The notes under the pieces: model-generated
What the model was told of the DNA's origin: nothing
Databases searched by the model: none
Seen by the model: only the letters and a program-made list of their open reading frames with translations
In this document: in pieces, positions 19,479 to 46,024 of the stretch
How positions within the stretch are numbered: the first letter of the stretch is position 1
How the letters are laid out: every line of letters starts with the position of its first letter
Program-made: the position numbers and the translations under genes
NCBI RefSeq assembly: GCF_026261605.1
Contig: NZ_CP102486.1
Span: 1,178,001-1,242,000 of the forward strand
Length of the DNA: 64,000 nt
Direction of reading: 5' to 3'
Source: Dechloromonas sp. A34
GTDB lineage: Bacteria > Pseudomonadota > Gammaproteobacteria > Burkholderiales > Rhodocyclaceae

Positions 19479-21407
19479 TCAGGTGGTAATCGGCTGGCCG
19501 TCGGGGCGGGTGATTGCGAGAGTGGCCGAACGCGGCCGCCCGCCGACGGCTTCCGGGAACTGGCTGGCCGGCCAGGCCGAGATCGCGGTCGGCCGAGCCG
19601 GGTCGGAACGTTCGCTGGTGCCTTCGCCGGGATGCTGGATATTGACGAAAAGTGTTTTGCCATCCGGCGTGGTCGTCATGCCGGTCAGTTCGCAGCCTTT
19701 CGGGCCGGTCAGGAAGCGGCGGGTTTCGCCGCTCCGCACATCGGCGACCAGCATCTGGTTGTTGCCGAGGCGGGCGTAGTCGCCCTGGTTCAGGACGCTG
19801 GTCGAGACGTCGGTCTGGATCCACAGCCGCCCGGCCCGGTCGAACCACAGGCCGTCCGGGCTGCCGTAGGCATCGCCCTTGATGGTACCGCGCTGGCCTG
19901 CGCTGGCATGCTGTGGGTCGCCGGTCAAGGCGAAGATGTCCCAGTCGAAGGTATTGGCCGCCGCATCCTGGCGACTTTCGCGCCAGCGCACGATATGGCC
20001 GAAGACGTTATCGGGGCGCGGGTTCGCGGCGTTCAGGCCGGCTCCGGCCGGGGTCCCGCGCTGGCTGTTGTTGGTCAGCGTGACATAGACCTCGCGACTC
20101 TGCGGATGCACCGCGATCCATTCCGGTCGGTCCATCTTGGTGGCGCCGGCGAGGTCGGCGGCCTGCCGGCAGCGGATCGCCACATCGCCCTGGTTGCTGA
20201 AGCCGTATTCGGGAGTCAGCGCCCCATTCGGATATTTTTCGCCGTGGCGCAGTGGCAGCCAGCGGCCTTTGCCATCGTCGCCAAAGCGGGCGACGTAGAG
20301 CGTGCCATGGTCGAGCAGGGTGGCAGTGTCGCTCTGCCCGGCGATGTAACGGTCGCGCGAGACGAACTTGTAGATGTATTCGAAACGCTCGTCGTCGCCC
20401 ATATAGACGACGACCCGGCCGTCGCGGGCGAGGGTGACGGTGGCCCCCTCGTGCTTGAAGCGGCCGAGCGCGGTGCGTTTGACCGGCGCCGCCTGCGGGT
20501 TCCAGGGATCGATCTCGACCACCCAGCCGAAGCGGTTGGCTTCGTTCGGGTGGCGCGCCAGATCGAAGCGCTCGTCGAATTCGTGCCAACGGTAGCCGGC
20601 CGTCTTGCCGCTGATGCCGTAGCGCATCTGATCGGCGCTCGGCGTCGTCGGGGCCTTGAAGTAGCCGTTGAAATTCTCTTCGCAAGTCAGGTAGGTGCCC
20701 CAGGGCGTGACGCCCATCGCGCAGTTGTTCAGCGTGCCGAGCGCGAATTCGCCCCAGCGGTCGGTGGCGGTCAGCATCGCCGGGTGGGCGCGGGCCGGGC
20801 CGCTGATCCGGCACGGCGTATCGGCCGTGATCCGGCGCGCCCAGCGCGAGGGGCGGACGACCTGCCAGCCGTCCTTGGCGCGGCGCACTTCGATCACCGA
20901 AACGCCTGTCGCCGCCTTCGACTTGGCGACCTTCTCGGCACTCCAGTCAGCCATGCCGCCGACGTGGAGCAGGCCGTCGTCGGTGTATTCGTGATTGATG
21001 CAGATCAGGCCGTGCGTCGAGGAAGCATTGCCGCGTTCGACGAAAGGGAAGAAGTGCATGCCGTCGTGATGCATGCCGGCCTGCTGCAACTGCTCGGCGG
21101 CGCTGTCGGCGGCGTCGGCTCTGGCGCGCGGCCCGTCGGACACCGGATCGCCCCAGGCGTAGAGCAGCTGGGCGGCAAAGCCGCTGGCCAGGCGAACTTC
21201 GTCGGCGGTGGACGCGCTCAGCGTGGCGAAGTCGGGGAGCCGGCCGGCGGCCAGGGCGGGGAGCGGGAGGCCGACCGCGGCCAGCGCCCCGCCTCCGGCG
21301 GTCAGTACGGCGGCGGCGAGCAGGCGGCGGCGAAACGGATCGGCCAGGTTGTCCGGTGTCGGGTTGGCGATGGAGTCGGCAGCGGGTTCGAAGCAGGAAT
21401 TCGGCAT
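19479..21407 (-). CDS. phoX: PhoX-family phosphatase (DUF839), Tat-exported
   Basis: A ~642-residue secreted protein. The N-terminus holds a twin-arginine-type signal (DPFRRRLLAAAVLTAGGGALAAVG). The body carries PhoX/DUF839 landmarks: LICINHEYTDDG, WGTYLTCEENFNGYF (a cysteine/acidic metal region), FGWVVEIDPWNP, GRFKHEGATV, VYMGDDERFEYIYKFV, RPEWIAVHPQ, VTLTNNS, NPRPDNVFGHIVRW, GSPDGLWFDRAGRLWIQTD. PhoX enzymes are calcium/iron-dependent alkaline phosphatases releasing phosphate from monoesters in the periplasm. ATG at 21407 is chosen; an in-frame TTG at 21437 is an alternative. A possible Pho box lies just upstream. The symbol rests on family resemblance; some DUF839 proteins have no proven phosphatase activity. 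Confidence 0.83.
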   Translation of the reverse strand: MPNSCFEPAADSIANPTPDNLADPFRRRLLAAAVLTAGGGALAAVGLPLPALAAGRLPDFATLSASTADEVRLASGFAAQLLYAWGDPVSDGPRARADAADSAAEQLQQAGMHHDGMHFFPFVERGNASSTHGLICINHEYTDDGLLHVGGMADWSAEKVAKSKAATGVSVIEVRRAKDGWQVVRPSRWARRITADTPCRISGPARAHPAMLTATDRWGEFALGTLNNCAMGVTPWGTYLTCEENFNGYFKAPTTPSADQMRYGISGKTAGYRWHEFDERFDLARHPNEANRFGWVVEIDPWNPQAAPVKRTALGRFKHEGATVTLARDGRVVVYMGDDERFEYIYKFVSRDRYIAGQSDTATLLDHGTLYVARFGDDGKGRWLPLRHGEKYPNGALTPEYGFSNQGDVAIRCRQAADLAGATKMDRPEWIAVHPQSREVYVTLTNNSQRGTPAGAGLNAANPRPDNVFGHIVRWRESRQDAAANTFDWDIFALTGDPQHASAGQRGTIKGDAYGSPDGLWFDRAGRLWIQTDVSTSVLNQGDYARLGNNQMLVADVRSGETRRFLTGPKGCELTGMTTTPDGKTLFVNIQHPGEGTSERSDPARPTAISAWPASQFPEAVGGRPRSATLAITRPDGQPITT

Positions 21408-21460
21408 GGCGGTCCACGGGTAGTCGGTTGCCGGCAACTATCGCCAGCCATTGTTGCAGG

Positions 21461-21494
21461 AGCATGACGACGGCTTGTCACAGTAGCTTAACGA
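21461..21494 (-). promoter_or_regulatory. weak candidate Pho box and -10 upstream of phoX
   Basis: On the minus strand two 7-base units TCGTTAA and CTGTGAC occur with an 11-base period (plus-strand bases 21488-21494 and 21477-21483). CATGCT lies 10 bases further on (21461-21466) as a poor -10. The match to the CTGTCAT consensus is partial; position and gene function make it plausible only. Confidence 0.35.
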
Positions 21495-21540
21495 GCCCGC
21501 CCTATCGTGTCGCACTCCTTCTCCTGTCTCAGGTAGCGTT

Positions 21541-23520
21541 GTGTTGAAAAACGGATATGAATTTCTTCTTGGCCGCCTCGGCTTTCGCGGCTTCTTCGTC
21601 ACCATCGGCCTGGTCTTTACCCTGGCCTTTCTGGCGGTCGCACTGCCGCATCTGCTCTTGCGCTGGGAAGCCAGGCAGGCCGCCGAGGCGCGTCTCGAAG
21701 CGATCCGCCTGAGCGAACCAGCGCGCCAATTGCTGCGTGAATTGCGTCAGCACCGGGCCCGGCTGTTCTTTGCCGGCGCCGGCGATGCCCAGGCGGCCAC
21801 CGACTTGCCGGCCAGGATGCCCGAGCTTGCCGCCGTCCAGGATGGCGGCGACAAGCTGCGCGAACTGCTCGCCATCAGCCCGGAAGACAGCGCCGGACGC
21901 AAGCGGATGCAGTGGTTCGCCGCTTTCAGCGAGGCGAGCGATGGCCTGCAGCAGCAGATCACCGAGCGCCTGGGCAGTGCCGGCGGCATGCCGGGCGACG
22001 GCCATTTGCCGGTTCTGGCAGGAATCTGGATCAACGACTTGCCGCTCCTCACCGAGTCGCTTGCCCGCCTGCATGTGCTGGCCGGCGTCGCGGTGCGCGA
22101 AGGCATGGTCGCCGAGCGCCTGCGCCCCGAGCTGTCGGCTTCGATTGCCGTGGCGGCCCATGCACTGGCCAAGCTGCAACGGGAAATCGAGCCGCTGGCC
22201 GGCGCCGCGCCGGCCCTTGTTGACCTGCAGGCGCGCGTCGTCACCCTCGGCGAGCAATTCGAACTGATCCGCACGTTGGCCTATGGGTTGGCGCTGAGCA
22301 ATACCGTGTATTCCACCGCCGAGGTCGAGAGCGCCATCGGCCAGCCCCTGACGCAGGCCGAGGAGATCGCGCAGCACAGCGAGCGGGCCGTGTTGGCCGC
22401 GCTCGGCGATGAACTGGAACGGGCCCGCTTCGACCTCTTGATGACGCTGCTGGTGATCGCCGGCAGCATGCTGCTTTCCTGCGGCGGCCTGTATCTGGCG
22501 TATTCCCGCCTGGCCTCGAGCATCGAACTGCTGGCCCGCGGCGCGCAGCAACTGGCGACCGGCGATCTGGCAGTGGCGATCGAACTGTCCGGCCAGGACG
22601 AATTGCAGCGGATCGCCGAATCGCTGCGCGCGGTACGCGACGGCATGCGTTCGCTGGTCGGCGAAATCGTCGCCAGTGCCCAGGCGCTGACCGCCGGCTC
22701 GCTTGCCTTCGCCCAGGCGGCCGGGGCCTCGGCTGAGCGGGCGCGGCAGCAGCAGGGCGATACCGCGCATGTCGTCAAGGCGGTTGAGGAGGCCGGACGC
22801 CAGGTCGCCGAGATCGCCCAGGCCGCCGGCGAGGGCGATGCCGTGGCCCGCAGCTCCGACCACCTGGCCAGTTCCGGCCTGGCTTCGGTCAGCCTGGCCA
22901 AACAGGTTCTCGAAGCCATGAACACCGACATCGGACTGGCGACAGCCTGTCTGGAACGCATGGAGATGGAGACGCGGCAAGTCTCGTCGGTGGTCGCGGT
23001 GATCGCCGGGATCGCCGAACAGACCAACCTGCTGGCACTCAATGCCGCCATCGAGGCGGCGCGGGCCGGCGAAAGCGGCCGCGGTTTTGCCGTGGTCGCC
23101 GACGAAGTGCGCAAGCTGGCAGAACGGACGGCGCAGAGCACCAAGGAAATCGGCCAGATGATCGGCCGCATGCAGGGTATTGCCGGCGAAACGGCGGTCG
23201 CCGTGCGCACGGCGGCCAGCCATGTGGCGAGCAGCAACGAAAGTGCCGGGGAGGCGGCCGCGGCGATGAGCCGGGTTCGGGATCAGGCGCGCCAGGTCGA
23301 GTCGGCCAGCACGCGGATCACGACGGCCCTGGTGACCCACCGCCGCGAGGCTGAGCGCATCGAGACACTGGTCGCCGGCATCGCCAGTCTGTCGCTGGAA
23401 AACGGCGAGGCCCTGCTCGGCGCTGCGCATTCGGCGCGCTCGCTGGAGAGCCTGGCCGCCGATTTGCGGCGGGCGATCGGGCGCTTCAGGCTGGCCGGAG
23501 CCGCATACAGTCCGGCCTGA
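21541..23520 (+). CDS. methyl-accepting chemotaxis protein
   Basis: A 659-residue chemoreceptor with a GTG start. A transmembrane segment (~residues 17-38, [22 protein letters not shown]) precedes a long helical periplasmic region (~40-300), followed by a second membrane segment (~302-322, [23 protein letters not shown]), a HAMP-like linker ([19 protein letters not shown]) and the cytoplasmic signalling domain. The hairpin tip [20 protein letters not shown] and the following [18 protein letters not shown] are intact, so it should bind CheW and CheA. There is no CheR-docking pentapeptide at the C-terminus. The ligand cannot be inferred; the periplasmic region resembles no obvious Cache domain. 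Divergent from phoX. Confidence 0.92.
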
Positions 23521-29383: not shown

Positions 29384-29417
29384 GATTGTTACAGCCCGTC
29401 ATTTGGCTGTAACAATC
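29384..29417. repeat. 13-bp perfect inverted repeat overlapping the pst Pho box
   Basis: GATTGTTACAGCC (29384-29396) and GGCTGTAACAATC (29405-29417) are exact reverse complements separated by 8 bases. There is no T-run after it, so it is not an obvious terminator for the upstream gene. It covers the PhoB repeats. Confidence 0.85.
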
Positions 29418-29429
29418 GCCGGGTAATCT
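29385..29429 (+). promoter_or_regulatory. Pho box promoter of the pst operon
   Basis: Three 7-base units with an exact 11-base period: ATTGTTA (29385-29391), CCGTCAT (29396-29402) and CTGTAAC (29407-29413); the last two match the PhoB consensus CTGTCAT-N4-CTGTCAT well. A -10-like TAATCT follows 10 bases later (29424-29429), the spacing typical of PhoB promoters where the Pho box replaces the -35. It implies autoregulated induction of pstSCAB-phoU-phoBR at low phosphate. Confidence 0.82.
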
Positions 29430-41453: not shown

Positions 41454-41509
41454 CTGTAACCGTCCGGTCATCCGGGCGTCACGAACCCTTCATTGGCGGC
41501 CGCTATCCT
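41454..41509 (+). promoter_or_regulatory. four-unit Pho box and -10 of the phosphoesterase-glycosyltransferase operon
   Basis: CTGTAAC (41454), CGGTCAT (41465), GCGTCAC (41476) and CCTTCAT (41487) recur with an exact 11-base period, i.e. two abutting Pho boxes in direct repeat. TATCCT (41504-41509) lies 10 bases after the last unit, the usual position of the -10 in PhoB promoters. The predicted transcription start coincides with the ATG of the next gene at 41516. Confidence 0.82.
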
Positions 41510-41515
41510 GCGGTC

Positions 41516-42301
41516 ATGCCCAAGGTCAGATCAGTTTTTCTCTCCGACATCCACCTCGGCACGCGGGCGTGCCAGGCGGATCGCCTGCTCGATTTCCTGC
41601 GTGAATACCCGGCCGAACAGACCTATCTGATCGGCGACATCATCGATTTCTGGGCGATGAGCCGCAGCATCCACTGGTCGCCGGCCCAGAACACGGTGGT
41701 TCAGAAGCTGCTGCGCCGGGCCCGTCACGGTGATCGCGTCGTCTTCATCCCCGGTAACCATGACGAGGCGCTGCGCGACTATTGCGGCATCGTTTTCGGC
41801 GATGTCGAGGTAGTCGACGAACTGATTCACGAAACGGCCGACGGCCGGCGCTTCCTGCTCATTCATGGCGACGTTTTCGATCAGGTGACGCGCCACCACC
41901 GCTGGGTGGCGGTGCTCGGCGACAAGGCCTACGACCTGCTGGTCCGCCTCAATCTGCTGCTCTCTTGGGGGCGGCGCAAGCTCGGGCTGTCCGGCTACTG
42001 GTCGCTGGCCGGCTACGCCAAGCGCAAGGTCAAGACGGCGCTGAATTTCATCTTCGATTTCGAGGATTCGGCCATTCACCATGCCCGCGAGCGCGGCCTG
42101 GATGGCGTCATCTGCGGCCACATCCACTGGGCCACGATCCGCGAGATCGATGGCCTGAGCTACGTCAATTGCGGCGACTGGGTAGATTCCTGCACCGCCA
42201 TCGTCGAACACTTCGACGGCCGTCTCGAACTGGTCGCCTGGGGCATGCGCAGCATGGTTCCGGCGCTGTCGGCGCCGGTCGTATTACATGCCGAGGTCTG
42301 A
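41516..42301 (+). CDS. calcineurin-like metallophosphoesterase (PlcP / UDP-diacylglucosamine hydrolase-like)
   Basis: 261 residues with a complete dimetal phosphoesterase site: FLSDIHLGTR, LIGDIIDFW, IPGNHDEALRD, LIHGDVFD and CGHIHWA. The sequence type (LLDFLREYPAEQTYLIGDII, YWSLAGYAKRKVKTALNFI) is the branch usually annotated as UDP-2,3-diacylglucosamine hydrolase but which includes the PlcP phospholipase C of alphaproteobacterial lipid remodelling. Two features favour the PlcP role: a Pho box directly upstream and a glycosyltransferase gene abutting downstream. No ribosome binding site is seen; the message may be leaderless. A lipid A role (LpxH-like) is the alternative. Confidence 0.86.
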   Translation: MPKVRSVFLSDIHLGTRACQADRLLDFLREYPAEQTYLIGDIIDFWAMSRSIHWSPAQNTVVQKLLRRARHGDRVVFIPGNHDEALRDYCGIVFGDVEVVDELIHETADGRRFLLIHGDVFDQVTRHHRWVAVLGDKAYDLLVRLNLLLSWGRRKLGLSGYWSLAGYAKRKVKTALNFIFDFEDSAIHHARERGLDGVICGHIHWATIREIDGLSYVNCGDWVDSCTAIVEHFDGRLELVAWGMRSMVPALSAPVVLHAEV

Positions 42302-43483
42302 ATGCGTGTCCTGATGGTATCCGATGTCTATTTCCCCAGGGTCAATGGCGTCTCGACCTCGATCGAGACCTTCCGGCGGACGCTGGCCGGGCACGGCATC
42401 GAGGTCCGCCTGGTCGTCCCGCGCTATGGCGACGAGCCCGAGGAGGCCGGGGTCGTGCGCGTCGCCGGGCGACCGGTGCCCGGCGACCGCGAGGATCGCC
42501 TGGTAGGCTGGCGTGCCATGCATCGCGCCGTGCTCGAAGCGGCGCGAGACTGCGATCTGATCCACATCCAGACGCCCTTCATCGCCCACTATGCCGGGCT
42601 CAAGGCGGCGCGCCGCCTCGGCCTGCCGGTGGTGGCGACCTACCACACGCTGTTCGAGGAGTATCTCCAGCACTACGCACCCCTGCTGCCCACCGGGTGG
42701 CTCAAGGAGCAGGCGCGGGCCTTCTCGCGTCGCCAGTGCAATGCCCTCGACAGCGTGATCGTGCCGTCGACGGCGATGCGCCAGCGCCTCGATGCCTATG
42801 GCGTGAGCGTGCCGCTGCACGTCCTGCCGACCGGCATTCCGACCAGCCGTTTTGCCGGTGGCAACGGCCCAGCCTTCCGTTATCGCCACGGCATCCTGTC
42901 GACCCGGCCGGTGGCGCTGTTCGTCGGCCGCGTGGCGCACGAGAAGAACATCGGTTTCCTGCTCGAGGCCTTGACCCATGCCCGCCAGGCCCGGCCCGAC
43001 CTGCTCTTCGTGGTCGCCGGCGAAGGTCCGGCGATGGCCGATCTGGCCGCCCAGGTCAAGGCGCTCGGGCTGCGCGATGCCGTCCAGTTCATCGGCTACC
43101 TCGACCGCAGCAGCGAACTGCCCGACTGTTACGCGGCGGCCGACGTCTTCATTTTCGCCTCGCGCACCGAGACCCAGGGCCTGGTGCTGCTCGAAGCGAT
43201 GGCGGCCGGCCTGCCGGTGATCGCGCTGTCCGAAATGGGGACGACCGACATCCTGGCGCCGGCGCGCGGGGCAATTTCGCCGCCGGCCGAGGTGCGGGCC
43301 TTCGGCGCGGCGCTTGCCGACTTTCTGAATCGGCCCACGGCCTGGCGGCACTTGCGGCGGGAAGCCGCGGCCTATGCCGGGGAATGGTCGGATGGCGCAA
43401 TGGCGGCTCGCCTGGCCGGGCTCTATCGCAAGCTGGCGGGCCGGGAAAATGTTGCGCCAGTTCCAACAGTCGCCGCGGCGTGA
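42302..43483 (+). CDS. GT4-family glycosyltransferase, Agt/diacylglycerol glycosyltransferase-like
   Basis: 393-residue GT-B fold enzyme. N-terminal acceptor domain: MRVLMVSDVYFPRVNGVSTS (the 'PxxNGV' acceptor loop of lipid glucosyltransferases such as SqdX and Agt), THQTPFI-like HIQTPFIAHYAG and TYHTLFEEYLQHY. C-terminal donor domain: FVGRVAHEKNIGFLLEA, the E-x7-E motif in SRTETQGLVLLEAMAAG. It starts on the base after the phosphoesterase stop, so the pair forms one operon under the Pho box. By analogy with plcP-agt operons the acceptor would be diacylglycerol and the product a mono- or diglycosyl lipid. Sugar specificity unknown. Confidence 0.88.
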   Translation: MRVLMVSDVYFPRVNGVSTSIETFRRTLAGHGIEVRLVVPRYGDEPEEAGVVRVAGRPVPGDREDRLVGWRAMHRAVLEAARDCDLIHIQTPFIAHYAGLKAARRLGLPVVATYHTLFEEYLQHYAPLLPTGWLKEQARAFSRRQCNALDSVIVPSTAMRQRLDAYGVSVPLHVLPTGIPTSRFAGGNGPAFRYRHGILSTRPVALFVGRVAHEKNIGFLLEALTHARQARPDLLFVVAGEGPAMADLAAQVKALGLRDAVQFIGYLDRSSELPDCYAAADVFIFASRTETQGLVLLEAMAAGLPVIALSEMGTTDILAPARGAISPPAEVRAFGAALADFLNRPTAWRHLRREAAAYAGEWSDGAMAARLAGLYRKLAGRENVAPVPTVAAA

Positions 43484-43495
43484 TTAAAATGCGGC

Positions 43496-43690
43496 ATGAC
43501 CGAACGCCTCGAACCGACCTGTAGCCATTGCCGTTACTTCCAGATGCAGGACGCTCAGAACGGCACCTGCCACCGCTTTCCGCCGGTTTTTGCCGGCGAA
43601 AGCTCGCCGCGGGAAACGCATCATTGGCGTTTTCCCGCCGTCAGCCCATTCGCGTGGTGCGGCGAATTCCAGCCCCTACCGCAACGCTAG
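43496..43690 (+). CDS. small cysteine-rich protein
   Basis: 64 residues: CSHCRYFQM, then GTCHRFPPVF and a late WCGEF. The spacing C-x2-C...C...C suggests one metal site. No known function; similar small 'CxxC...CxRxPP' proteins are scattered in proteobacteria. Starts 12 bases after the glycosyltransferase stop, so it may be part of the Pho-controlled transcript. Its 3' end overlaps the convergent gene by four bases. No strong ribosome binding site. Confidence 0.6.
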   Translation: MTERLEPTCSHCRYFQMQDAQNGTCHRFPPVFAGESSPRETHHWRFPAVSPFAWCGEFQPLPQR

Positions 43691-44379
43691 AACAGTTTTG
43701 GCGAGATCAGCCGCAGTCCGATCGAAAACCAGTGCTGGTCGGCGATCTGGCCGATCTGGCTGCCATAGGTGGTGTCGACCTGCAGGTGACCGGGCAGTAC
43801 CCAGTAGCGCAGACCCATCTGGAACAGGGCACTGCCCTTGTCCTGGCCGAAGCTCTCGGCAATCACATAGAGCCGGTCGGTGGTCTGCAACTCGCCGCCG
43901 ACGCCCCAGGTCAGCCGGCCTTGCCGGGTCTCGCGCTCGTGCACGTGGCCGAGGTTGGTATGGACGACCAGCCGGTCATCGGCCACAGAGAAGCTGAGCG
44001 GAATGTAAAAATAGGGTGATCCCGACTGGCCGCTGCCGGGTTGGGTGGCGTAGCCGGCGGCCAGGCCGACGCCCCAGCCGTTGGTTTCAAGCGGCTTGAA
44101 CAGCGTCTTGCCCTGGACGACCAGGGCGCCGCTCTCCTGATTGCCGTTGGCGTAAGCCAGGGCGCCGCCCAGCGTTATTTCGAAATTGCCGCCCGGATTG
44201 CAGGCCGGCAAGGCCCAATATTCGCGCTGGTAGTCATGGAGGTGCAGCCAGGACTCGACCTGGCAGGCACCGGCATCGGTCAGCCGGGCATCGTCGGTGG
44301 TCATCGGGCGGGCCGCCTGGGCTGAGGGGGTCAGCATCCCGAGCAGGGCGAACAGCAGGGCGGTGGGATGAATTTTCAT
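43687..44379 (-). CDS. putative outer-membrane / secreted beta-barrel protein
   Basis: 230 residues with a signal peptide (MKIHPTALLFALLGMLTPSAQA). The mature part begins RPMTTDDARLTDAGACQVESWLH and continues with alternating polar/hydrophobic strands rich in Gly and aromatic residues (GGALAYANGN, WGVGLAAGYATQPG, YFYIPLSFSV, ITWGVGGELQ-like LTWGVGGELQTTDRLYVIAE), ending in phenylalanine, as outer-membrane barrels often do. The 'TDDA.....G.cQvEsW' opening is shared by uncharacterised proteobacterial outer-membrane proteins. No ribosome binding site; Pho-box-like repeats with a TAGTAT -10 lie just upstream on its strand. Confidence 0.72.
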   Translation of the reverse strand: MKIHPTALLFALLGMLTPSAQAARPMTTDDARLTDAGACQVESWLHLHDYQREYWALPACNPGGNFEITLGGALAYANGNQESGALVVQGKTLFKPLETNGWGVGLAAGYATQPGSGQSGSPYFYIPLSFSVADDRLVVHTNLGHVHERETRQGRLTWGVGGELQTTDRLYVIAESFGQDKGSALFQMGLRYWVLPGHLQVDTTYGSQIGQIADQHWFSIGLRLISPKLF

Positions 44380-44385
44380 GGGCGC

Positions 44386-44432
44386 GCAATACTAGTCGGC
44401 AATTCTGACAATTGGGTGACATCGGCTGTCAT
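44386..44432. promoter_or_regulatory. candidate divergent Pho box between the outer-membrane gene and dgkA
   Basis: On the minus strand ATGTCAC and TTGTCAG (plus coordinates 44415-44421 and 44404-44410) share TGTCA with an 11-base period, and TAGTAT follows 10 bases later, ending about 9 bases before the ATG at 44379. On the plus strand a perfect CTGTCAT (44426-44432) precedes dgkA. The plus-strand spacing is less regular. Regulation of the minus-strand gene is the better supported. Confidence 0.5.
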
Positions 44433-44480
44433 CAAAGCTTAGCGCAGGCTGATTACCGTGAGCACTTTCACGGAGATCGC

Positions 44481-44897
44481 ATGCACGAACCCTCGCCGCC
44501 CGAACTCGGCCTCGACCCGGCCCATGAGTCGCCCTTCAAGGGCAAGACCGGCCTGCGCCGGGTCTGGAATGCCTTCAACTACTCGATCGCCGGCCTGCAG
44601 GCTGCCTATCTCTGCGAGGATGCCTTTCGCCAGGAGGTCCGCCTCGCCGCCCTGCTGATCCCGGCCGCCCTGCTGTTGCCGGTGCCCTGGCTGGGGCGCG
44701 GCCTGATGATCGCCAGCGTGCTGCTGGTGCTGGTCGTCGAACTGCTCAACTCGGCCATCGAAGCGGTGGTCGACCGGGTCAGCCTGGAAAACCATCGCCT
44801 GGCCAAACGCGCCAAGGATATCGGCAGCGCCGCAGTCCTCGTCTCGCTGCTGATCGTGTTCGTCGTCTGGGGTGGCGTCCTGCTGGAGACTTTCTGA
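44481..44897 (+). CDS. dgkA: diacylglycerol kinase (DgkA type)
   Basis: 138-residue integral membrane kinase phosphorylating diacylglycerol to phosphatidic acid. Family features: GLRRVWNAFNYSIAGLQAAYLCEDAFRQE, three membrane helices (LAALLIPAALLLPVP, GLMIASVLLVLVVELLNSAIEAVVD with the signature NSAIEAVVDR, and AAVLVSLLIVFVVWGGVLL) and KRAKDIGSAAV. The ATG at 44481 follows CGGAG. Its stop overlaps the next glycosyltransferase start (TGATG). In this setting it would recycle diacylglycerol released from phospholipids. Confidence 0.95.
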   Translation: MHEPSPPELGLDPAHESPFKGKTGLRRVWNAFNYSIAGLQAAYLCEDAFRQEVRLAALLIPAALLLPVPWLGRGLMIASVLLVLVVELLNSAIEAVVDRVSLENHRLAKRAKDIGSAAVLVSLLIVFVVWGGVLLETF

Positions 44898-46024
44898 TGT
44901 CGCTCGCTATCGCCTTCGTCACCGAAACCTTTCCGCCCGAGGTCAATGGCGTGGCAATGACGGTCGGCCGGCTGGTCGGCGGCATGCGCGAACGCGGCCA
45001 CCGAGTCAGTGTCGTCCGCCCCCGTCAGGGCGAGGCCGATGTCGGCAGCGCGCACGAGTTTCCGGTCCCCGGCCTGCCGCTGCCCGGCTATCCGGGCCTG
45101 CGCTTCGGCCTGCCGGCCGGTCGCCAGCTGGTGCGGCGCTGGCGCTTGCAGCGCCCCGATCTAGTCCATGTCGTGACCGAAGGGCCGCTCGGCTGGTCGG
45201 CGGTCAGTGCCGCCCGCCAGCTTGGCATTCCGGTGACTTCCGGCTTCCATACCAATTTCGACCGCTACAGCGTGCATTACGGACTGGGCTGGCTGCGCTC
45301 GGCGGTCGCCACCTACCTGCGCACCCTGCACCGGCGGACGCGGGCGACCCTGGTGCCGACCGCGGCGCTGGCTGCCGACCTGGCCGGCGCCGGGCTGAGC
45401 GGGGTGCGGGTGGTCGGGCGCGGCGTCGATACCGGCCTCTTCGACCCGGCCCGTCGCTCGCCGCAACTGCGCGCCGCGTGGGGCGTACCCGAGGGTGGCT
45501 TGGCCTGCCTCTATGTCGGCCGCCTGGCGCCGGAAAAAAACCTGGCGTTGGTCGAGAAAAGTTTTGCCGCGATCCGCAGCGTTTGTCCGGCCGCCCGCAT
45601 GATCTGGGTCGGCGACGGCCCGGCCGCCATCCGGCTGCGCGCGGCGCATTCCGATCACCATTTCGCTGGGGTGCGGCTGGCTGACGATCTGGCGGCGCAT
45701 TACGCCAGCGCCGACCTCTTTCTCTTTCCCAGCCTCAGCGAAACCTATGGCAATGTGGTTGCCGAAGCCATGGCCAGCGGCCTGCCGGTGCTTGCCTACC
45801 GCAGCGCGGCGGCGGCCGAACTGATCTGCGACGGGGCCAATGGCCAACTGGTGGCCCCCGGCGACGAAGCCAGCTATCTCATGGCCGCCTGCGAGCTGGC
45901 GGCCGGTGGGCGGGGGCGGCTGCCCGAACTGGCCATGGCGGCCCGCGAGGCTATGCTGCCGCGCAACTGGGCACTGGTTGTCGAACGCTTCGAGACGGTC
46001 GCCCGCGAGGCGATCCTGGCCTGA
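44897..46024 (+). CDS. second GT4-family glycosyltransferase, lipid-glycosyltransferase-like
   Basis: 375 residues, GT-B fold. Same acceptor-loop type as the 42302 gene: FVTETFPPEVNGVAMT, then HVVTEGPLGWSAV and SGFHTNFDRYSVHYG; the donor site has YVGRLAPEKNLALVEKS, WVGDGPA and SLSETYGNVVAEAMASG. This subgroup (FPPEVNGVA...) includes mannosyl- and glucosyl-transferases acting on diacylglycerol or phosphatidylinositol. It is translationally coupled to dgkA. The two glycosyltransferases, 1.4 kb apart, could add successive sugars or act on different lipids. Confidence 0.88.
   Translation: MSLAIAFVTETFPPEVNGVAMTVGRLVGGMRERGHRVSVVRPRQGEADVGSAHEFPVPGLPLPGYPGLRFGLPAGRQLVRRWRLQRPDLVHVVTEGPLGWSAVSAARQLGIPVTSGFHTNFDRYSVHYGLGWLRSAVATYLRTLHRRTRATLVPTAALAADLAGAGLSGVRVVGRGVDTGLFDPARRSPQLRAAWGVPEGGLACLYVGRLAPEKNLALVEKSFAAIRSVCPAARMIWVGDGPAAIRLRAAHSDHHFAGVRLADDLAAHYASADLFLFPSLSETYGNVVAEAMASGLPVLAYRSAAAAELICDGANGQLVAPGDEASYLMAACELAAGGRGRLPELAMAAREAMLPRNWALVVERFETVAREAILA

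What the first reader, a model, noticed from the sequence alone, without database searches (positions are those of the whole stretch)
41516..43483. Probable PhoB-controlled PlcP-Agt lipid-remodelling operon in a betaproteobacterium
Seen: a calcineurin-type phosphoesterase of the UDP-diacylglucosamine-hydrolase-like branch is followed with zero spacing by a GT4 glycosyltransferase with the lipid-acceptor 'PxxNGV' loop, and the pair sits behind a Pho box. Established: in alphaproteobacteria and marine bacteria, PlcP releases diacylglycerol from phospholipids and Agt glycosylates it, replacing phospholipids by glycolipids when phosphate is scarce. Inference: this organism, whose window also holds pst/phoBR, PhoX and PAP, does the same, which would matter for polyphosphate-accumulating relatives.
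Basis: partly seen in the sequence, partly recalled or inferred. Interest (0 to 1): 0.78.

Follow-up and report, generated by a model that had tools for sequence, protein, structure and literature searches.

The report
Phosphate-starvation lipid-swap gene module, betaproteobacterial variant
A bacterium related to Dechloromonas carries genes that very probably strip phosphate off its membrane lipids and put sugars there instead when phosphate runs out; the kind of system is known, but here the first sugar-adding enzyme is of an untested branch and the module is larger than first reported.

Summary
Confirmed and extended. At 41516-43483 a PlcP-type phosphoesterase is followed with zero spacing by a GT4 glycosyltransferase, behind a four-repeat Pho box and a -10 element ending 6 nt before the ATG (predicted leaderless). 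Core promoter positions are kept in 27-30 of 30 same-genus loci; the site beats every simulated 64-kb background (43.3 bits against at most 6.7). PlcP is not LpxH: the genome has a separate lpxH and a tree splits the families with full support.

Two corrections. (1) The glycosyltransferase is not Agt/Agt1. It belongs to a separate GT4 clade (100/100), nearer to alpha-monoglucosyl-DAG-synthase-like enzymes, with Glu where Agt has Asp; no Agt1-type gene was found in 25 genomes of the genus, some incomplete. (2) The module continues to 46024: dgkA (DAG kinase) and a second GT4 of the Agt2 type (48% to Pseudomonas Agt2, a glucuronosyl-DAG synthase), behind a second Pho-box-like promoter. In other betaproteobacteria the order is plcP-gt1-(dgkA)-gt2.

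Function is inferred, not shown. New variant of a known kind.

The parts
41454..41493 (+). Pho box, four direct repeats at 11-bp spacing (CTGTAAC, CGGTCAT, GCGTCAC, CCTTCAT)
   Evidence: Sequence; 30-locus footprint; matrix score against simulated background
41504..41509 (+). -10 element TATCCT, 6 nt before the plcP ATG (predicted leaderless transcript)
   Evidence: -12 T 28/30, -11 A 30/30, -10 T 28/30, -9 C 27/30, -8 G 27/30, -7 T 30/30
41516..42301 (+). plcP: calcineurin-type phospholipase C-like phosphoesterase, 261 aa
42302..43483 (+). gt1: GT4 glycosyltransferase, 393 aa, alMGS-like branch, predicted DAG glycosyltransferase
44426..44459 (+). Second Pho-box-like promoter (CTGTCAT, 4 nt, GCTTAGC, 10 nt, TACCGT) in front of dgkA
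   Evidence: 0 of 500 resamples reach its score; anchored at the ATG: CTGTCAT in place in 24 of 29, CTTAG in 24 of 29
44481..44897 (+). dgkA: diacylglycerol kinase, 138 aa from this ATG
   Evidence: PF01219 111.5 bits
44897..46024 (+). gt2: GT4 glycosyltransferase, 375 aa, Agt2-type (predicted glucuronosyl-DAG synthase); start overlaps dgkA stop by 1 nt
   Evidence: 48% to Pseudomonas Agt2; clade 100/98 and 100/99
44389..44421 (-). Pho-like repeats TGTCAC and TTGTCAG, then TAGTAT, facing the divergent gene 43687-44379
   Evidence: 2.5 bits, not significant alone; TGAC at 11-bp spacing in 21-26 of 28

Best explanation
A PhoB-controlled phospholipid-to-glycolipid module. When phosphate is short, PhoB switches on plcP-gt1 and dgkA-gt2. 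PlcP cuts the phosphate head group from phospholipids and leaves diacylglycerol (DAG). GT1, an alpha-monoglucosyl-DAG-synthase-like GT4 that sits where other bacteria keep Agt1, adds a neutral hexose (probably glucose from UDP-glucose). GT2, an Agt2-type GT4, adds glucuronic acid to make an acidic glycolipid. DgkA returns surplus DAG to phosphatidate so that DAG does not build up. Shown here: gene content, order, families, promoter conservation. Inferred: activities, sugars, PhoB binding and the role of DgkA.
For: PlcP is 53% identical to the Pseudomonas and 52% to the Sinorhizobium PlcP, which are 46.6% to each other, against 46% published for the characterised pair (PMC8528852 passages). PlcP/LpxH split 100/100. 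Pho box 43.3 bits against a simulated maximum of 6.7. Among the best 80 loci kept by the named-genome scan, gt1 is next to plcP in 78, gt2 downstream in 55, dgkA in 34 (some stretches end early, and the 80 are the nearest relatives). Over 274 class-level genomes strong GT1 hits and plcP co-occur (26 of 30 GT1 genomes against 52 of 244 others; p 2e-12), as do strong GT2 hits and plcP (24 of 32 against 54 of 242; p 7e-9). GT2 groups with Pseudomonas Agt2, published as a glucuronosyl-DAG synthase. Three NDP-sugar dehydrogenases over the family cut-off could supply UDP-GlcA (which sugar they use was not tested). PlcP and DagK rise together under phosphate depletion in P. putida (PMC5082522 passages).
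Against: No biochemistry. GT1 is below every NCBIfam cut-off, alMGS included (129 of 400 bits), and its top model is N-acetylglucosaminyl-phosphatidylglycerol synthase (138 of 480 bits), which has another acceptor; the published DAG enzyme Agt2 has the same top model (135 bits), so this does not decide. Fold search of GT1 ranks MshA, PimB', GlgM, BshA and sucrose-phosphate synthase alike. Four of 77 class-level stretches hold both Agt1-type and GT1-type genes, so GT1 may do something other than replace Agt1. gt2 is absent from 25 of 80 named stretches, of which 18 had more than 4 kb of room. A DAG kinase works against net DAG release. Five of 36 same-genus genomes lack plcP, three of them at least 93% complete. 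The Accumulibacter and Niveibacterium plcP promoters did not beat all resamples.
Confidence: 0.77

Rival explanations
1. Same pathway, but GT1 is a second-step enzyme (adds a sugar to GT2's glycolipid or makes a diglycosyl lipid), or glycosylates phosphatidylglycerol, rather than being the first DAG glycosyltransferase.
For: Four of 77 class-level stretches hold both Agt1-type and GT1-type genes. GT1 differs from Agt1 and Agt2 at the acceptor-side motif (QTPFxAH against TEGPLG). Its top NCBIfam model is a PG-glycosylating enzyme, far below cut-off.
Against: GT1 directly follows plcP, and no Agt1-type gene was found in 25 genomes of the genus, some incomplete; gt2 is not always nearby. The PG model also tops the list for the DAG enzyme Agt2.
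Confidence: 0.15
2. GT1 and GT2 glycosylate another carrier (LPS core, exopolysaccharide) and merely share Pho control.
For: GT4 is a large family; the nearest solved folds include non-lipid enzymes.
Against: Repeated linkage to plcP in many families of the class, and GT2's clade includes the characterised Agt2.
Confidence: 0.06
3. The phosphoesterase is an LpxH paralogue acting in lipid A synthesis, as database names say.
For: Where a name is given, databases call homologues UDP-2,3-diacylglucosamine diphosphatase or pyrophosphatase LpxH.
Against: 41 bits to the LpxH model, cut-off 190; the Pseudomonas and Sinorhizobium PlcP records score 44.5 and 38.9; true LpxH elsewhere in the genome at 234 bits; tree.
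Confidence: 0.02

Closest known systems
PlcP-Agt1/Agt2 lipid renovation of Pseudomonas aeruginosa (PA3219, PA3218, PA0842; PMC8528852)
   Same: Pho box, PlcP orthologue, two GT4 enzymes, Agt2-type second enzyme
   Different: First GT is from another GT4 clade; gt2 and dgkA lie in the plcP neighbourhood here, while Agt2 (PA0842) is at another locus there
PlcP-Agt of SAR11, Agrobacterium, Methylosinus (PMC4796936, PMC8231724, PMC9239053)
   Same: plcP followed by a GT4; Pho-box control reported for plcP clusters
   Different: The Agt signature is FPSxTDTFG (Asp) and SAR11 GTcp has 334 aa; GT1 has FASRTETQG (Glu) and 393 aa; 31% identity to Pseudomonas Agt1
plcP beside non-Agt glycosyltransferases: types 3 and 5 of PMC4796936, type Ia methanotrophs of PMC9239053
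   Same: A different glycosyltransferase stands behind plcP, so the swap as such has precedents
   Different: Those are tied by their authors to di/triglycosyl-DAG enzymes (GT21 by PMC8231724) and to a Bacillus subtilis-like DAG glycosyltransferase; their sequences were not compared with GT1 here
alpha-monoglucosyl-DAG synthase family (alMGS, NF049988)
   Same: Best-scoring DAG-glycosyltransferase model; GT1 groups with a Latilactobacillus protein whose top model it is (100/100)
   Different: 129 bits against a cut-off of 400 (the Latilactobacillus protein has 222); different phylum and context
LpxH (UDP-2,3-diacylglucosamine hydrolase)
   Same: Calcineurin-type family and metal motif
   Different: Separate clade; separate lpxH in the genome

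Membership tests
PlcP | Calcineurin-type metal-binding motifs | tested here: met
   D11, H13, D41, N81, H82, H117, H202, H204 invariant in 10 sequences
PlcP | Falls with characterised PlcP and apart from LpxH | tested here: met
   100/100 split of 33 PlcP and 14 LpxH rows; the bootstrap had not quite settled. That the two reference records are the characterised orthologues rests on their 46.6% mutual identity
PlcP | Separate lpxH in the same genome | tested here: met
   G000:C1:1697865-1698554, 234 bits, cut-off 190
PlcP | Phospholipase C activity on membrane phospholipids | not testable with these tools
   Needs biochemistry
LpxH | Reaches the curated LpxH cut-offs | tested here: not met
   41.3 of 190.35 and 43.3 of 134 bits
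Agt / Agt1 (GTcp clade) | GT1 lies in the Agt1 clade | tested here: not met
   Separate clades, GT1 100/100 and Agt1 99/98
Agt / Agt1 (GTcp clade) | FPSxTDTFG-type motif with Asp | tested here: not met
   GT1 has FASRTETQG; Glu in all 26 GT1 rows, Asp in all 18 Agt1 rows; motif from PMC8231724 passages
Agt2-type glucuronosyl-DAG synthase | GT2 groups with Pseudomonas Agt2 | tested here: met
   48% identity; 100/98 clade of 17 rows
Agt2-type glucuronosyl-DAG synthase | UDP-GlcA:DAG activity | not testable with these tools
   Only three NDP-sugar dehydrogenases over cut-off as precondition
alMGS (NF049988) | GT1 reaches the curated cut-off | tested here: not met
   129 of 400 bits
N-acetylglucosaminyl-PG synthase (NF053787) | GT1 or GT2 reaches the curated cut-off | tested here: not met
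   138 and 149 of 480 bits
Pho regulon | Pho box in promoter position | tested here: met
   plcP. dgkA: weaker
Pho regulon | PhoB binding and induction | not testable with these tools
   Needs footprinting or RNA data
Prokaryotic diacylglycerol kinase | PF01219 over cut-off | tested here: met
   111.5 of 22.3 bits

The most novel reading that the evidence does not exclude
GT1 founds an uncharacterised family of diacylglycerol glycosyltransferases that took over the Agt1 slot behind plcP in Rhodocyclales and related betaproteobacteria, within a four-gene Pho module plcP-gt1-dgkA-gt2 in which a DAG kinase meters how much DAG becomes glycolipid.
Probability: 0.5. Interest if true: 0.55.

Novelty: new variant of a known kind. 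Interest (0 to 1): 0.45.

Why it matters
It predicts that many betaproteobacteria (Azonexus/Dechloromonas, Zoogloea, Gallionellaceae and Hydrogenophilales relatives, an Accumulibacter relative) swap phospholipids for glycolipids under phosphate stress, and it names an enzyme to test whose sugar and product cannot be read from known Agt enzymes. Where databases name these PlcP homologues they use an LpxH-type name, so the pathway is easily missed. If true, the phosphorus quota and lipid biomarkers of these organisms depend on phosphate supply.

Tried and rejected

Samples and weak points: the Agt1 set is a random 18 of 38 plus the Pseudomonas reference, 18 in all once L170 was dropped; PlcP rows are 5 (window and four named records) and 28 of 77 class-level loci; of 15 LpxH loci given, 14 gave a row (L217 did not). 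Strong hits in the co-occurrence test are E below 1e-85 (GT1) and 1e-80 (GT2), read off by hand; 18 and 20 genomes with weaker hits counted as without; the own genome is among the 274. The footprint was anchored on GTCAT, so that motif's invariance there is by construction; one search repeats it anchored at the ATG. It left out six loci where dgkA sits differently. In one search the plcP promoter beat all 50 resamples in 21 of 32 further loci; one (L104) has the same promoter as a training locus, so 20 of 31.

Literature: searches of open-access papers listed no experimental study of PlcP lipid remodelling in a betaproteobacterium; several lists were cut (20 of 48, 12 of 423, 12 of 31), subscription papers are not covered, and most listed papers were not opened. 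Seen as passages: PMC8528852, PMC4796936 (and its section 13 in full), PMC8231724, PMC13086504, PMC9239053, PMC5082522. The rest: listing and abstract start only.

Full report
Setting. The window is G000:C1:1178001-1242000 of a one-contig 4.76-Mb genome. Its PlcP is 93% identical to that of a named Azonexus MAG and 90% to Dechloromonas hortensis, so the host is of the Azonexus/Dechloromonas group; the genome itself is unnamed. Genes with pst/phoU/phoB/phoR domains, PhoX and a double PPK2 protein lie in the same window.

The pair. plcP (41516-42301) and gt1 (42302-43483) abut exactly. Close plcP homologues occur in 31 of 36 same-genus genomes, own included; of these 31, the 30 fetched all have gt1 next to it, 29 with -1 to +1 nt spacing and one (L035) at 279 nt.

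The promoter. Upstream of plcP the 30 loci keep four 11-bp-spaced Pho repeats, core positions in 27-30 of 30, and a -10 hexamer ending 6 nt before the ATG; three loci (L029, L039, L042) have a deviant hexamer. A matrix made from the 29 other loci gives the window site 43.3 bits; the next best place in the window scores 4.1 and the best of 40 first-order Markov sequences of 64 kb, both strands, 6.7. In 31 further loci, mostly of other genera, the best two-repeat-plus--10 match beat all 50 resamples in 20; Accumulibacter and Niveibacterium are among the 11 that did not.

PlcP, not LpxH. The protein scores 41 bits on the LpxH model (cut-off 190), as the Pseudomonas and Sinorhizobium PlcP records do (44.5 and 38.9). 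The genome has its own LpxH at 234 bits. A tree of 33 PlcP and 14 LpxH rows splits them with 100/100. The fetched Pseudomonas and Sinorhizobium proteins are 46.6% identical to each other, which matches the published 46% for the characterised pair; that these records are the characterised orthologues rests on this match.

GT1 is not Agt. In a tree of 61 GT4 proteins, GT1 (26 rows), the Agt1 type (18, with Pseudomonas Agt1) and the Agt2 type (17, with Pseudomonas Agt2) are three clades, supports 100/100, 99/98 and 100/98. The published Agt signature has an Asp (FPSxTDTFG; PMC8231724 passages); all 18 Agt1 rows have it, all 26 GT1 rows have Glu. GT1 also differs at the acceptor-side motif, QTPFxAH against TEGPLG. 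Four more GT4s, one a Latilactobacillus relative of the alpha-monoglucosyl-DAG synthase family, fall with GT1 and apart from Agt1 plus Agt2 (100/100); that protein itself scores 222 of 400 bits on the family model. A search with Pseudomonas Agt1 found no Agt1-type gene in the own genome or 24 further genomes of the genus, some of them incomplete (best 147 bits; the two own-genome hits are GT2 and GT1). Six genomes of other families in the order gave 326-363 bits and a seventh two partial hits (168 and 157), each within 100 bp of the plcP found.

The rest of the module. 44481-46024 holds dgkA and gt2, overlapping by one nucleotide. GT2 is 48% identical to the Pseudomonas GT4 that lies beside plcR, the context of PA0842/Agt2 as I recall it; PA0842 makes glucuronosyl-DAG (PMC8528852 passages). 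In front of dgkA stands CTGTCAT-N4-GCTTAGC-N10-TAnnGT. Aligned at the ATG, 24 of 29 sequences have CTGTCAT and 24 of 29 CTTAG at the same place. The window copy is reached by 0 of 500 resamples, and 25 of 29 other loci beat all of 50 resamples; against the whole window it is not significant (10.4 bits; simulated maxima average 10.1). In the 80 named loci gt1 follows plcP in 78, gt2 lies downstream in 55 and dgkA in 34. Niveibacterium (L106), Rhodocyclus (L117), L118 and L122 have plcP-gt1-dgkA-gt2 in a row; Tepidiphilus (L114), a Gallionellaceae MAG (L115) and a Hydrogenophilales MAG (L120) have plcP-gt1-gt2; in L111, L119, L121, L124 and L133 gt2 follows on the other strand. In 77 class-level plcP stretches Agt1-type genes are present in 36, GT1 in 12, GT2 in 5, dgkA in 14.

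Mechanism. PlcP makes DAG; GT1 and GT2 cap it with a neutral and an acidic sugar; DgkA recaptures surplus DAG. The PlcP and GT2 steps follow from orthology to studied enzymes, the GT1 step from family resemblance and position, the DgkA step from its family. P. putida raises PlcP and DagK together under phosphate depletion (PMC5082522 passages), so DgkA is a plausible partner. GT1's sugar is unknown; glucose is the best guess.

Novelty. PlcP-Agt remodelling is established in alpha- and gammaproteobacteria, and other glycosyltransferases behind plcP have been noted (PMC4796936 types 3 and 5; PMC9239053, type Ia methanotrophs). What differs is the GT1 branch, the dgkA and Agt2-type gene in the same neighbourhood, and the betaproteobacterial breadth.

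Noticed in passing
21476-21508 (+): PhoB-type promoter (TGTCAC, GCTTAAC, TATCGT; 22.4 bits, simulated maximum 17.5) between divergent phoX (19482-21437, -) and a methyl-accepting chemotaxis protein (21541-23520, +): a possible phosphate-starvation chemoreceptor.
   Followed up: partly
43687-44379 (-): 230-aa protein with an N-terminal signal-like stretch and no Pfam or NCBIfam hit at E 0.01, divergent from dgkA, with Pho-like repeats on its own strand; present in 17 of 80 named loci.
   Followed up: partly
29397-29429 (+): Pho-like repeats in front of the PstS-type gene 29454 (7.9 bits, within background for the whole window).
   Followed up: no
L137, L139, L146, L147, L162, L168, L169, L183, L191, L199, L201, L202, L206 (L153 doubtful): dgkA lies in the plcP stretch in 14 of 77 class-level genomes, 9 within 400 bp, in some of them where the GT is Agt1-type.
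   Followed up: partly
G049: A same-order genome has two close plcP copies, one with two in-frame stops.
   Followed up: no
NZ_CP137508.1, CP075839.1, NZ_CP042268.1: Three Pseudomonas aeruginosa plasmid records carry a plcP; in the one read (L050) an Agt1-type gene follows.
   Followed up: no
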